DNA of 64,000 nt from Pseudomonas fontis (lineage in GTDB: Bacteria > Pseudomonadota > Gammaproteobacteria > Pseudomonadales > Pseudomonadaceae). The stretch is from positions 62,001 to 126,000 of the forward strand of contig NZ_JAMDGY010000024.1 in assembly GCF_028656955.1 (NCBI RefSeq), read 5' to 3'. The notes below the pieces were generated by a model. That model had not been told where the DNA came from. It ran no database searches and was given only the letters and a program-made list of their open reading frames with translations. Shown in pieces: positions 30,441 through 34,531 of this stretch (positions are counted from its first letter, which is position 1; each line of letters starts with the position of its first letter). The position numbers and the translations under genes are program-made.

Positions 30441-31832
30441 TTACTTGCGCAGCAGGTGCTTCCAGCCACGGCTCTGGAACACCGCCATCACCTGATGGAT
30501 ACGCGCTTCGAGCACCTCGGTACGGACCTCGGCTTCCACTTCGTCGCTGATCGGCAGGTTGGCCAGTTCGTGCAGCTTGTTCAGCTCACCGAACAGGCGG
30601 TCCAGGTCCGGGCTCTCCAGCACTTGGCGAGCGTGGTGCAGCCAAGCCAGCAGGCGCTCGATACGCGGCAGCTGTTCAGCCAGGTCTTCCGGCTGACGAT
30701 GGTACAGCGGCAGGTTCAGCGCCTTGGCCTCATCCGCCAGCAACACGTTCAGCCAGTTGGCCAACTGGGCAGCGCCCTGACGGTCGCCGCGCTTGTTGCG
30801 CTCGACGGTCCAGCCACGGGCCAGCAACCAGCGCGAGGTGTCCAGGGAGAACTGGCCCCAGCGGGTGTCCAGCAACTCTTCGGCAAACTGCTCAGGTGCC
30901 GCACGGCGGATGTCTTCGTCGTCATTGCCGAACTGCACCAGCGGGCGCCAGTCTTCCAGCAAGGCGTCGAGGCTCGCACGCAGGGCATGGGTGGTGGTAC
31001 GCGGCGCGGCCTGGCCGAGGCTGCTGGCCAGGGCGCGCAGTTCGGCCAGGGCCTGAACCCAGTCCTGCAGCAGGCGCCAGTGGCCGTTGAAACGGTATTG
31101 CTCAGCCAGACGCTGGCTGGCACCCAGCAGCTTCCAGGCGAGGGCGGCAAACGCGTCGTCCAGCGGCATTTCGGCGTTCAGCTCGGCAGCCGGCAGGCTC
31201 AGCGCGTAGCTGTTCGGGTCGAGCAGGCGGTAACCGCGCTCGGCCTTGCTGATGTCGCAAGGGAACAGCGGCAGCTTGGCGGCCAGCTCCGCGGCCAGCT
31301 CCAGCAGGGCTTCAGGCTCGCCTTCGCGCAGTTCCAGCTCCAGCTCGCAGATCTCTTCCTTGTGCTTGCCGGCGATCACGGTGCCCAGGTCCAGGGCCGC
31401 CTCGATCACCACCTTGGCCTTGCCACGGCCCCAGGCGATTTCCGCGTATTCGCGGGTGAAATCGGTGGTGAACAGCGGCTTGATGGTCTTTTTGTCCAGC
31501 TCGGCCAGTTCGGCCGGCCAGCAGGTGTCGTCGAGCTTCTTCAGGTCGAGCTTGGCCTTGGCCAGCTCCCACTCGTGCTCGTTGCGCTGGGACAGGCCGG
31601 CAACGCTCTGGCCGCGGGTCTTGAGGGTCTGGATGACCACGTCGCCGTCACGGCGCAGGCGCAGGGCAACCTTGGCCGCCGCCAGGTCACGCTCGGGGGT
31701 ATCGAAGTACTGATTGAGCAGTTCACGCTGCTGCCAGCCGGACTTGTTGCGCTTCTTCAGCAATGGGTGGTCGCGCAGCGCGGCGAGGGTCTCGCGGCTG
31801 ACCCGCAGTTTGATTTCGGTTTCTTTGTGCAT
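30441..31832 (-). CDS. CYTH and CHAD domain protein (YgiF-like inorganic triphosphatase)
   Basis: 463 residues. The N-terminal CYTH domain opens with the metal-binding signature E-x-E-x-K (Glu4, Glu6, Lys8 in MHKETEIKL). It continues with basic tunnel residues (LRRDGDVVIQTLKTRG) and EICELELELREGEPEAL. The C-terminal CHAD domain (~220-460) is helical with conserved His/Arg, and such domains bind polyphosphate. E. coli YgiF hydrolyses inorganic triphosphate. The start at 31832 gives the CYTH motif at the very N-terminus. Confidence 0.9.
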   Translation of the reverse strand: MHKETEIKLRVSRETLAALRDHPLLKKRNKSGWQQRELLNQYFDTPERDLAAAKVALRLRRDGDVVIQTLKTRGQSVAGLSQRNEHEWELAKAKLDLKKLDDTCWPAELAELDKKTIKPLFTTDFTREYAEIAWGRGKAKVVIEAALDLGTVIAGKHKEEICELELELREGEPEALLELAAELAAKLPLFPCDISKAERGYRLLDPNSYALSLPAAELNAEMPLDDAFAALAWKLLGASQRLAEQYRFNGHWRLLQDWVQALAELRALASSLGQAAPRTTTHALRASLDALLEDWRPLVQFGNDDEDIRRAAPEQFAEELLDTRWGQFSLDTSRWLLARGWTVERNKRGDRQGAAQLANWLNVLLADEAKALNLPLYHRQPEDLAEQLPRIERLLAWLHHARQVLESPDLDRLFGELNKLHELANLPISDEVEAEVRTEVLEARIHQVMAVFQSRGWKHLLRK

Positions 31833-31959
31833 TGCTGGGTAATCCAGGCTCGGATGACAGGGAGCGTCTTGGCCGTGCAGTGTACAGGACTCGGCCGCCG
31901 ACGGTTTATTCCAGGTGCCCGATGGCCCTATGATGGGCCTCGAACCGAGGAGAACGCGC

Positions 31960-33117
31960 ATGCCGTTGCCATCGCTCAAAGACCAGTTCGCCGCCCTGAT
32001 CGCGGCGCCTTCGGTCAGTTGCACCCAACCGAGCCTGGACCAGTCCAACCGCGCGGTGATCGACCTGCTCGCCGGCTGGCTCGGCGACCTGGGCTTTGCT
32101 TGCGACATTCAGCAAGTCACCCCCGGCAAGTTCAACCTGCTCGCCAGTTTCGGCAGTGGCCCGGGCGGGCTGGTGCTGGCCGGGCACAGCGACACCGTGC
32201 CGTACGATCCGCAACTGTGGAAAACCGACCCGCTCAAGCTCACCGAGGTCGACGGGCGCTGGGTGGGCCTGGGCAGCTGCGACATGAAGGGCTTCTTCGC
32301 CCTGGTGATCGAAGCGGTGCGGCCGCTGCTCGACCAACCGTTCAAGCAGCCATTGCTGATCCTCGCCACCTGCGACGAAGAAAGCTCGATGTCCGGCGCC
32401 CGCGCCCTGGCCGAGGCCGGTCGCCCACTGGGCCGGGCAGCGGTGATCGGTGAGCCGACCCAGCTCAAGCCGATCCGCCTGCACAAGGGCGTGATGATGG
32501 AGCGCATCGACATCCTCGGGCGCAGCGGCCACTCCTCCGACCCAAGCCTGGGCCACAGCGCCCTGGAAGCCATGCACCAGGTGATGGGCGAGCTGATGGG
32601 CCTGCGCCGGCAATGGCAGCAGCAGTACAGCAACGCGCAGTTCAGCGTGCCGCAGCCGACGATGAACTTCGGCTGCATTCATGGCGGCGACAACCCCAAC
32701 CGCATCTGCGGTCAATGCGCCCTGGAGTTCGACCTGCGGCCCCTGCCGGGCATGGACCCTGAAGTCCTGCGCGCCGCCATCCGCAGCAAGCTGGCGCCGC
32801 TGGCCGAGCAGCACCAGGTGCAGATCGACTACGCGCCGCTGTTCCCCGAAGTACCGCCGTTCGAGCAAGCTGCCGACGCTGAGCTGGTGCGGGTGGCTGA
32901 ACGCCTGACCGGCCATCGCGCCGAAGCAGTAGCCTTTGGCACCGAAGCGCCTTATCTTCAGCGCCTGGGTTGCGAGACCCTGGTGCTGGGCCCGGGCGAT
33001 ATCGCCTGTGCCCACCAGCCTGGCGAGTACCTTGAAATGTCACGCTTGCAGCCTACTGTGCGTCTAGTGCGTGAACTGATCGAACATTATTGCCTCAGCC
33101 CGGTAATTGCCCGCTGA
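31960..33117 (+). CDS. argE: Acetylornithine deacetylase
   Basis: 385-residue M20-family metallohydrolase, converting N-acetylornithine to ornithine in arginine synthesis. Metal-site blocks: LAGHSDTVPYD (His76, Asp78), GLGSCDMKGFFA, the catalytic-Glu block LATCDEESS and GEPTQLKP; the C-terminal ligand lies in GPGDIACAHQPGEYL. GAGGAG precedes ATG 31960. A TATGAT at 31929-31934 may be its -10. Next to argA, as in other pseudomonads, where ArgJ recycling can make ArgE auxiliary. Confidence 0.93.
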   Translation: MPLPSLKDQFAALIAAPSVSCTQPSLDQSNRAVIDLLAGWLGDLGFACDIQQVTPGKFNLLASFGSGPGGLVLAGHSDTVPYDPQLWKTDPLKLTEVDGRWVGLGSCDMKGFFALVIEAVRPLLDQPFKQPLLILATCDEESSMSGARALAEAGRPLGRAAVIGEPTQLKPIRLHKGVMMERIDILGRSGHSSDPSLGHSALEAMHQVMGELMGLRRQWQQQYSNAQFSVPQPTMNFGCIHGGDNPNRICGQCALEFDLRPLPGMDPEVLRAAIRSKLAPLAEQHQVQIDYAPLFPEVPPFEQAADAELVRVAERLTGHRAEAVAFGTEAPYLQRLGCETLVLGPGDIACAHQPGEYLEMSRLQPTVRLVRELIEHYCLSPVIAR

Positions 33118-33135
33118 GACCATCCGTTATTTCCA

Positions 33136-33176
33136 AGAGGAGAGTGCGCGTGACGCCAAGCCTGTTCCGACGATAA
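33136..33176 (+). CDS. Possible leader peptide upstream of argA
   Basis: AGAGGAG (33136-33142) is the strongest ribosome-binding site between argE and argA. It sits seven bases before GTG 33150, which opens an 8-codon frame, (M)TPSLFRR, ending in CGA CGA TAA at 33176; GTG 33144 would add two codons (MRVTPSLFRR). The last two sense codons are arginine CGA, uncommon in this GC-rich genome. argA follows after 56 bases and has no Shine-Dalgarno of its own. An arginine-sensing or translation-coupling leader is a reasonable inference, but no clear terminator/antiterminator pair is visible. Confidence 0.4.
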
Positions 33177-33232
33177 CCCTTCGAGCGCTGTGTGCTTTTC
33201 CGTTCTTGTCCCTTTTTCTACAGGCTCTGGTT

Positions 33233-34531
33233 ATGCCCGAATACGTCAATTGGCTGCGTCACGCTTCGCCTTACATCAACGCCCACCGGGACTGCACCTT
33301 TGTGGTCATGCTCCCGGGTGATGGGGTCGATCATCCCAACTTCGGCAATATCGTCCACGACCTGGTGCTGCTGCACAGCCTCGGCGTGCGCCTGGTGCTG
33401 GTGCATGGTTCGCGCCCGCAAATCGAAAGCCGCCTGAACGCCCGTGGCCTCAGTGCCCACTATCACCACGGCCTGCGCATCACCGATGCGGCCACGCTGG
33501 AATGCGTGATCGATGCCGTCGGTCAGCTGCGCATCACGATTGAGGCCCGCCTGTCGATGGACCTTGCCGCCTCGCCGATGCAAGGCTCGCGCCTGCGCGT
33601 GGCGTCCGGCAACCTGGTCACTGCGCGGCCAATCGGGGTGGTCGAAGGGGTCGACTATCACCACACCGGCGAAGTGCGCCGGGTCGACCGCAAGGGTATC
33701 AACCGCCTGCTCGACGAGCGCTCCATCGTGCTGCTGTCGCCGCTGGGCTATTCGCCGACCGGCGAGATCTTCAACCTGGCCTGCGAAGACGTCGCTACCC
33801 GTGCAGCTATTGAGCTGGGAGCCGACAAACTGCTGTTGTTCGGCGCTGAACGCGGCCTGATCGATGCCGATGGCAAGCTAGTGCGTGAATTGCGCCCGCA
33901 GCAGGTGCCGGCGCACCTGGAGCGTCTGGGCAATGATTACCAGGGCGAGTTGCTGGATGCGGCGGCCGAGGCCTGCCGTGGCGGCGTGGCACGCAGCCAT
34001 ATCGTCAGCTATGGCGAGGACGGCGCGCTGCTGACCGAGCTGTTCACCCGTGACGGTGGCGGTACGCTGGTGGCGCAGGAGCAGTTCGAGAAGGTGCGCG
34101 AGGCGACCATCGAGGATGTGGGTGGCTTGATGGAACTGATTCGCCCATTGGAAGAGCAGGGCATCCTGGTGCGGCGTTCGCGCGAGGTGCTGGAGCGCGA
34201 GATCGAGCAGTTCAGTGTGGTCGAGCGCGACGGGATGCTGATCGCCTGTGCGGCCTTGTACCCGATTGCCGATTCCAAGGCGGGTGAGCTGGCGTGCCTG
34301 GCGGTGAACCCGGAGTATCGCCACGGCGGGCGCGGGGATGAACTGTTGGAGCGGATCGAGGTGCGGGCGCGGCAGATGGGCCTGAACACCCTGTTCGTGC
34401 TGACTACCCGTACCGCGCACTGGTTCCGCGAGCGCGGCTTTGCCCCGAGCGGGGTCGAGCGGCTGCCGGCGGCGCGGGCCTCGTTGTACAACTATCAGCG
34501 CAATTCGAAGATCTTCGAAAAAGCCCTTTAA
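33233..34531 (+). CDS. argA: N-acetylglutamate synthase
   Basis: 432 residues, the classical bifunctional-architecture ArgA. An amino-acid-kinase-like domain at ~1-285 (LVLVHGSRPQIESRL, VLLSPLGYSPTGEIFNL) binds the feedback inhibitor arginine. The C-terminal GNAT acetyltransferase domain (LACLAVNPEYRHGGRGDELLERIE) binds acetyl-CoA. It catalyses the first committed step of arginine synthesis. ATG 33233 gives the known N-terminus MPEYVNWLRHASPYINAHRD. The frame is open upstream, but that part is not ArgA-like. See the leader ORF just upstream. Confidence 0.95.
   Translation: MPEYVNWLRHASPYINAHRDCTFVVMLPGDGVDHPNFGNIVHDLVLLHSLGVRLVLVHGSRPQIESRLNARGLSAHYHHGLRITDAATLECVIDAVGQLRITIEARLSMDLAASPMQGSRLRVASGNLVTARPIGVVEGVDYHHTGEVRRVDRKGINRLLDERSIVLLSPLGYSPTGEIFNLACEDVATRAAIELGADKLLLFGAERGLIDADGKLVRELRPQQVPAHLERLGNDYQGELLDAAAEACRGGVARSHIVSYGEDGALLTELFTRDGGGTLVAQEQFEKVREATIEDVGGLMELIRPLEEQGILVRRSREVLEREIEQFSVVERDGMLIACAALYPIADSKAGELACLAVNPEYRHGGRGDELLERIEVRARQMGLNTLFVLTTRTAHWFRERGFAPSGVERLPAARASLYNYQRNSKIFEKAL

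What the first reader, a model, noticed from the sequence alone, without database searches (positions are those of the whole stretch)
33136..33232. Short ORF ending in tandem Arg codons ahead of argA
The best ribosome-binding site between argE and argA (AGAGGAG) serves an 8- to 10-codon ORF whose last two codons are CGA CGA before TAA. argA itself starts 56 bases on without a Shine-Dalgarno. Arginine is the end product and feedback inhibitor of ArgA, and CGA is uncommon in this genome, so ribosome stalling at these codons could tie argA expression to Arg-tRNA supply. I see no clear alternative hairpins, so coupling or reinitiation is as likely as attenuation.
Basis: partly seen in the sequence, partly recalled or inferred. 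Interest (0 to 1): 0.55.

Follow-up and report, generated by a model that had tools for sequence, protein, structure and literature searches.

The report
Tandem-CGA mini-ORF leader before argA
Just ahead of argA, the gene for the first enzyme of arginine synthesis, these bacteria carry a tiny reading frame of 4 to 8 codons that ends in two slow arginine codons, and it is kept so strictly that it very probably acts as an arginine gauge for argA.

Summary
An 8-codon ORF (33150-33176, GTG ACG CCA AGC CTG TTC CGA CGA TAA) with a strong Shine-Dalgarno lies between argE and argA. All 173 genus-labelled loci I read (159 distinct upstream sequences) carry such a mini-ORF with CGA CGA. A strict pattern occurs in 157 of 199 genus genomes; the other 42 have divergent versions. 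A scan of 29 divergent family leaders that did not presuppose CGACGA gave it in 17; the next dicodon scored 3. Length, peptide, stop codon and spacing vary; the CGA pair does not. In 11 loci argE itself ends in CGA CGA TGA. The only tRNA found that can read CGA has anticodon ACG. Folding suggests that the mini-ORF region hides argA's weak ribosome-binding site and that a ribosome paused at CGA CGA frees it (22 divergent leaders: p=6e-4 against shuffles, 1e-4 against swapped sites); a simpler duplex test was null. Best explanation: a translational attenuator reading Arg-tRNA supply. Translation, pausing and arginine response are inferred. My searches found no description. New variant of a known kind.

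The parts
31915..33117 (+). argE (acetylornithine deacetylase; name recalled from its sequence; first possible start taken), upstream neighbour; TGA at 33115-33117. In 11 related loci the orthologue's own C-terminus carries CGA CGA TGA
33136..33142 (+). Shine-Dalgarno AGAGGAG of the mini-ORF
   Evidence: -10.7 kcal/mol with anti-SD; stronger than argA's in 146 of 146 leaders
33150..33176 (+). leader mini-ORF GTG ACG CCA AGC CTG TTC CGA CGA TAA
33168..33173 (+). tandem CGA CGA codons, present in all 173 genus-labelled loci; proposed pause site
33149..33154 (+). CGTGAC (around the mini-ORF start), predicted to pair with argA's start GTTATG
33159..33165 (+). AGCCTGT, predicted anti-ribosome-binding-site arm (codons 4-6), within the assumed footprint of a ribosome paused at CGA CGA
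33177..33219 (+). pyrimidine-rich spacer with a predicted inner hairpin; no intrinsic terminator found
33220..33226 (+). ACAGGCT, weak argA Shine-Dalgarno region and partner of 33159-33165
33230..33235 (+). GTTATG with the argA start codon, partner of 33149-33154
33233..34531 (+). argA (N-acetylglutamate synthase; name recalled from its sequence)

Best explanation
A leader mini-ORF working as an arginine-sensing translational attenuator of argA. Ribosomes load at the strong site (33136) and translate the short frame. When charged tRNA-Arg with anticodon ACG (inosine at the wobble position) is scarce they dwell at CGA CGA, cover 33159-33165 and 33149-33154, and so free argA's weak ribosome-binding and start region (33220-33235): ArgA is made. 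When it is plentiful they finish quickly, the mini-ORF segment pairs with the argA start region and ArgA synthesis falls. Shown by sequence: the conserved mini-ORF, the fixed CGA identity, the single CGA-reading tRNA among those found, the relative SD strengths, and (statistically) a pairing fitted to its own argA site. Inferred: that the mini-ORF is translated, that ribosomes pause there, that pausing raises argA translation, and that arginine sets it.
For: SD-start-CGA CGA-stop in 173 of 173 genus-labelled loci; CGACGA top in a dicodon scan that did not presuppose it, 17 of 29 divergent leaders against 3 for the next. Strict pattern once each in 157 of 199 genus genomes, no reversed-pattern control hits. 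Only the two CGA codons are invariant among 22 divergent leaders (a set chosen to contain CGACGA), while ORF length (4-8 codons), peptide and stop (TAA 110, TGA 30, TAG 10 of 150) vary. Pair retained at the end of argE in 11 loci from 10 genomes. CGA read only by tRNA-Arg ACG among tRNAs at 65 places. In the Salmonella his leader CGA was read more slowly than CGU and CGC (passages of PMC4046918). Masking a paused ribosome opens the argA site, mean accessibility 0.38 to 0.56, against 0.37 for control masks, 150 related leaders; opening exceeds shuffles (Wilcoxon p=6e-4) and swapped sites (p=1.2e-4) in 22 divergent leaders. In five of six separately folded groups the consensus clearly pairs the leader with the argA site.
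Against: A plain duplex test over 150 leaders was null: cross-pairing as good as native in 44% of comparisons, median shuffle z -0.34. Singly, only 6 of 22 leaders beat shuffles at p<=0.1 for pairing. Loci L142-L145 and L151 alter the GCCTGT arm while argA keeps ACAGGC, so the arm is weakened without compensation. Two-sided pair changes were seen only in g9 (6 pairs, partly from one outlier row) and g6 (3 pairs, 5 sequences); none in g12, putida-, window- or fluorescens-type groups. In Salmonella speF orf34, CGCCGC sensed arginine as well as CGACGA (section 9 of PMC6386406), so arginine sensing alone does not explain the fixed CGA. The element was not found in nine sampled genera of the family or in 25 order-level loci. 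No transcript, ribosome-profiling or expression data.
Confidence: 0.6

Rival explanations
1. Rho-dependent attenuation: the mini-ORF is the sensor, but the paused ribosome shields a C-rich Rho site in the spacer instead of (or as well as) opening the argA ribosome-binding site, as translation of orf34 counteracts Rho at speF.
For: Spacer is pyrimidine-rich and C exceeds G (0.34 C, 0.22 G, 0.31 T, 0.13 A over 217 loci); no intrinsic terminator; precedent in the abstract of PMC6386406.
Against: No control for the composition was run and no Rho site is identified; it does not by itself explain the stall-dependent opening of the argA site.
Confidence: 0.2
2. Constitutive translational opener or reinitiation: a strong site loads ribosomes that melt the argA region or reinitiate, and the slow CGA pair only lengthens ribosome dwell; argA output is set but not arginine-regulated.
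For: Strong versus weak Shine-Dalgarno; Arg-Arg pairs with CGA gave high de-attenuation in the his leader (passages of PMC4046918).
Against: Stop-to-ATG distance varies from 52 to 131 nt, 169 in two loci, with no frame preference, unlike tight reinitiation; another slow codon pair should have served equally, yet the pair is always arginine, before an arginine gene.
Confidence: 0.17
3. The conserved bases are a DNA or RNA protein-binding site (for example ArgR), and the ORF is incidental.
For: Strong base-level conservation; ArgR is a known arginine regulator in Pseudomonas (passages of PMC10963909); 29 of 150 leaders have an ARG-box match with 1 or 2 mismatches.
Against: ARG box TGTCGCN6GNAA: 0 of 150 leaders match exactly and 121 have 3 or more mismatches; in the window such matches are no more common than in shuffles (224 against 222) and none with up to 2 mismatches lies in 33107-33232. 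An SD and an in-frame start and stop accompany the bases in 173 of 173 genus-labelled loci, with TAA, TGA and TAG exchanged and ORF length changing by whole codons.
Confidence: 0.02
4. Conserved N-terminal extension of ArgA read through the region.
For: The argA frame is open upstream in the window and in the listed genus genomes to varying lengths (474 aa here).
Against: The mini-ORF lies in all three frames relative to argA (42, 26 and 47 of 115 matches in 111 loci), so no fixed extension spans it.
Confidence: 0.01

Closest known systems
speF leader orf34 (Salmonella and other gamma-proteobacteria, PF10940)
   Same: Upstream ORF with two consecutive Arg codons that sense arginine; its translation helps unfold a structure sequestering the downstream ribosome-binding site (abstract and section 9 of PMC6386406).
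   Different: Longer ORF, Arg pair internal at codons 12-13, gene is a polyamine gene; codon choice is free (CGCCGC works). Here 4-8 codons, pair at or one codon from the stop, CGA kept in every carrier, gene is argA.
Amino-acid biosynthetic leader peptides (his, trp; transcription attenuation; recalled)
   Same: Short ORF with tandem codons for the pathway's end product just upstream of the biosynthetic gene.
   Different: No intrinsic terminator found; proposed output is translational; far shorter; synonymous codon identity fixed.
ermC-type translational attenuators (mechanism recalled; mentioned in a passage of PMC2965389)
   Same: Strong leader site, sequestered downstream ribosome-binding site, stall frees it.
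   Different: Stall there depends on drug and nascent peptide (recalled); here on codons, the peptide being unconserved.
E. coli argA tandem CGG codons (simulation, PMC10325894)
   Same: Tandem slow Arg codons in argA mRNA proposed to sense Arg-tRNA (passages).
   Different: Inside the argA coding region (positions 153 and 154), predicted positive feedback.

Membership tests
Ribosome-mediated leader-peptide attenuators of amino-acid biosynthesis | Translatable short ORF with SD upstream of the biosynthetic gene | tested here: met
   translation itself not shown
Ribosome-mediated leader-peptide attenuators of amino-acid biosynthesis | Tandem codons for the pathway end product | tested here: met
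   CGA CGA in 173 of 173 genus-labelled loci
Ribosome-mediated leader-peptide attenuators of amino-acid biosynthesis | Terminator/antiterminator pair (transcription attenuation subtype) | tested here: not met
   no terminator-like site in 32800-33400 by a simple consensus scan of the window only
Ribosome-mediated leader-peptide attenuators of amino-acid biosynthesis | Expression responds to the amino acid through the leader | not testable with these tools
   needs reporters or ribosome profiling
Translational attenuators (ermC-like) | Downstream ribosome-binding site sequestered by the leader region | tested here: inconclusive
   supported on 22 divergent leaders and in group folds; null in the simple duplex test
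Translational attenuators (ermC-like) | Stalled ribosome covers the sequestering arm | tested here: met
   computed only, with an assumed 30-nt footprint
speF orf34 / PF10940 | Conserved HIRRT*HIMM core | tested here: not met
   mini-ORFs of 4-8 codons such as MTPSLFRR set against the core quoted, by reading; no profile search run
ArgR-controlled promoters (ARG box) | TGTCGCN6GNAA half-site | tested here: not met
   tandem arrangement not tested
Curated RNA families (Rfam 15) | Match to any of 4227 models | tested here: not met
   0 matches at E<=1 in window 32600-33800

The most novel reading that the evidence does not exclude
A peptide-independent kinetic sensor in which codon identity itself is the conserved element: a pair of CGA codons, readable only by the inosine-bearing tRNA-Arg, at the end of a translated frame (a 4-8 codon mini-ORF, or in some species argE itself) times ribosome residence and so reports charging of one tRNA-Arg isoacceptor to argA. 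The end of one arginine enzyme's gene would then double as the sensor for the next.
Probability: 0.45. Interest if true: 0.78.

Novelty: new variant of a known kind. Interest (0 to 1): 0.64.

Why it matters
In Pseudomonas arginine control is ascribed to the AraC-type regulator ArgR, and the P. alloputida ArgR transcriptome paper I searched does not name argA in its main text (supplements not seen). A conserved leader would supply a control of the committed step. Invariance of one synonymous codon pair across otherwise dissimilar leaders makes codon-specific decoding speed as a regulatory signal directly testable with two-codon swaps, and the species whose argE carries the pair are a natural test of whether the free peptide matters.

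Tried and rejected
ArgA N-terminal extension: rejected, frame relation free. ArgR site: rejected. Intrinsic terminator: none in the window stretch. Known RNA family: none. Second copies elsewhere: a looser pattern gives 14 hits in the own genome against 5 for the reversed control; in frame are only the argA leader and one weak TTG case at C20:14353, not followed up. The first pairing test (RNAduplex of 32- and 33-nt stretches) was null; I think this is because both arms are shared across most of the genus, and I then used divergent representatives with shuffles and site swaps, so the supportive tests were chosen after a null one. My first search for argE-fused cases used a faulty expression and reported none; corrected. 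Loci L252-L255 repeat genomes already read and L252, L253 and L255 were first counted in the window's genus; relabelled. In one search the window figures for SD energy and spacer were taken one base off; one search gives the corrected energies.

Not done: tree-based counting of changes, composition control for the Rho idea, leaders of other arg genes, structure prediction (no protein question).

Full report
What is there. Between argE (TGA 33115-33117) and argA (ATG 33233) lies AGAGGAG (33136-33142) followed by GTG ACG CCA AGC CTG TTC CGA CGA TAA (33150-33176). An in-frame GTG at 33144 would add two codons; leaders of the same type share the start at 33150. The mini-ORF's Shine-Dalgarno is far stronger than argA's (-10.7 against -2.5 kcal/mol; stronger in 146 of 146 distinct leaders, means -8.2 and -3.1, with the caveat that mini-ORF starts were picked partly for having an SD). 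In 54 predicted window ORFs (19,303 codons) CGA is 134 of 1470 Arg codons and CGA-CGA 1 of 156 Arg-Arg pairs. Of 84 SD-preceded mini-ORFs in the window this is the only one ending in CGA CGA.

Conservation in the genus. ArgA is found in 199 of 199 genus genomes. A strict pattern (GGAG, 3-9 nt, GTG, three codons, CTG, one codon, CGA CGA, TRA) occurs in 157 of 199, one hit each in the per-genome table, with no reversed-pattern hits. In 33 of the 157 I read the hit just upstream of argA directly, and for 13 more the listed coordinates put it 54-72 nt upstream; the other 111 I did not compare one by one. For the 42 genomes without the strict pattern I fetched the argA upstream region: 42 of 42 have a divergent mini-ORF with CGA CGA. 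In all, 173 of 173 genus-labelled loci carry one; they hold 159 distinct upstream sequences, and 80 of them are the named records, which I counted to the genus without checking (most are titled Pseudomonas, one Pantoea sp. and one Gammaproteobacteria bacterium). Examples: ATG TTG CGA CGA CGC TAG, GTG AAG CTG CCC CAA CTG CGA CGA TAA, ATG CCA TTG CGA CGA CGA TAA. Named carriers among L032-L111 include P. vranovensis, P. putida, P. entomophila, P. fluorescens, P. brassicacearum, P. marginalis, P. viridiflava and P. mosselii.

Conservation beyond the genus. In other genera of the family (numbered, unnamed), by loci read: g9 13 of 13 (L252 and L253 are repeats), g12 15 of 15, g4 2 of 2, g2 2 of 2, g6 5 of 5, g8 1 of 1, g14 1 of 1, g16 1 of 2, g13 2 of 3; none in g17 (4), g15 (10, plus repeat L255), g11 (2), g10 (6), g19 (1), g18 (3), g5 (6), g3 (1), g7 (2). 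In g13 the third locus, L220, keeps CGA CGA but not the nearby stop. These come from 100 of the 148 family genomes; the rest were not read. At order level I read 25 loci from outside the family, of 109 such genomes with a match; none shows CGACGA, though in several the start position was set a few codons late.

A control that does not presuppose CGACGA: I clustered 255 upstream regions at 66% identity into 29 representatives and counted every dicodon at the end of every SD-preceded mini-ORF. CGACGA came first with 17 of 29 (11 of 11 in the genus, 6 of 18 elsewhere); the next scored 3, and most of the top eight overlap CGACGA itself. Among 22 divergent leaders that have the element (chosen by it) only those six bases are invariant; the codon after them in 150 leaders is a stop (106), CGA (30), CGC (12) or AGC (2).

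What the variation excludes. The mini-ORF is in all three frames relative to argA, so it is neither an ArgA extension nor a fixed-frame frameshift donor. Peptide length, sequence and stop codon vary, so the free peptide is unlikely to be the conserved function. In 11 loci (10 genomes; L131 and L158 are the same one) the argE stop is gone and ArgE itself ends ...VQRR or ...VLRR with CGA CGA TGA. They look like one clade, but I built no tree, and an internal GTG with GGAG ahead of it remains, so a separate start is still possible there. The ARG box consensus quoted in PMC10963909 (passages) does not fit.

Why CGA. The own genome's tRNA-Arg genes found by ARAGORN at the 65 Rfam tRNA places have anticodons ACG, CCG, CCT and TCT, no TCG (tRNA-Ile GAT and tRNA-Ala TGC were also missing, so a few tRNAs are probably lost in the draft assembly). 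CGA would then be read by the ACG tRNA, whose wobble base is inosine (established knowledge). In the Salmonella his leader, CGU and CGC were translated faster than CGA, and Arg-Arg pairs with CGA showed high de-attenuation (passages of PMC4046918). In Salmonella speF orf34 two consecutive Arg codons sense arginine, but CGACGA and CGCCGC did so alike (PMC6386406, abstract and section 9). So arginine sensing explains 'Arg Arg' but not 'CGA CGA'; long dwell even at moderate charging is my inference for the second.

How it may act. The window fold (117 nt, -32.1 kcal/mol, z -1.29, not exceptional overall) pairs CGTGAC (33149-33154) with GTTATG (33230-33235) and AGCCTGT (33159-33165) with ACAGGCT (33220-33226), hiding argA's start and weak Shine-Dalgarno. 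With a 30-nt ribosome masked over the CGA pair this pairing is lost. Over 150 related leaders the mask raises mean accessibility of the argA site from 0.38 to 0.56; masks elsewhere in the spacer leave it at 0.37. In 22 divergent leaders the opening exceeds that of leaders whose first 34 nt are shuffled (0.16 against 0.076, p=6e-4), as does the pairing (p=0.03); against chimeras with other species' argA sites the values are p=1.2e-4 and p=0.008. Separately folded groups g9, g12, putida-type, window-type and fluorescens-type each pair the leader with the argA site, with different partners (g9 uses bases ahead of its ATG, the window type codons 4-6); the sixth group, g6 with 5 sequences, does so only weakly. 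Results against: the first duplex test was null; singly only 6 of 22 leaders beat shuffles for pairing at p<=0.1; L142-L145 and L151 alter the arm without a matching change; two-sided changes occur only in g9 and g6 and are partly due to an outlier.

Literature. Seven searches of open PubMed Central text and passage look-ups in PMC2965389, PMC8632094 and PMC8297930 showed no description of an argA leader ORF in Pseudomonas; one search looked for CGA stalling. I saw listings, abstracts and passages, and one whole section, not whole papers; no supplements, and subscription journals are mostly not in the library. PMC10325894 (passages) predicts by simulation that tandem CGG codons inside E. coli argA sense Arg-tRNA.

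Verdict. That the mini-ORF with its CGA pair is real and under strong selection: about 0.97. That it senses Arg-tRNA supply for argA: about 0.75. That the output is mainly translational through the argA ribosome-binding site: about 0.6. It works like a leader-peptide attenuator; it does not show the orf34 core and no terminator of classical transcription attenuators was found.

Noticed in passing
L131, L138, L148, L149, L158, L168-L171, L246, L247 (end of argE): argE stop lost so that ArgE ends ...VQRR or ...VLRR with CGA CGA TGA: the leader's codons fused onto the upstream enzyme.
   Followed up: partly
L220 (genus g13), just upstream of argA: CGA CGA retained after TTG AAA CAG, but the reading frame runs on past it, unlike the other carriers.
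   Followed up: no
fluorescens-type leaders, e.g. L017, L021, about 30 nt upstream of the mini-ORF SD: A recurrent TATAAATTGCC or TATAAATCGCC near the argE stop looks like a possible -10 box; the scan of the window itself found no promoter.
   Followed up: no
G303:C1:2024974-2026268: argA matched as two overlapping fragments in different frames: a broken or mis-sequenced argA in one family genome.
   Followed up: no
G000:C20:14353-14400 (-): Only other in-frame TTG TTT CGA CGA TGA after GGAG in the own genome's pattern hits; probably chance.
   Followed up: no
window 30441-32108 (-) and 31915-33117 (+): The long minus-strand ORF and argE overlap by 194 bases when the first possible starts are taken, probably over-extended starts.
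   Followed up: no
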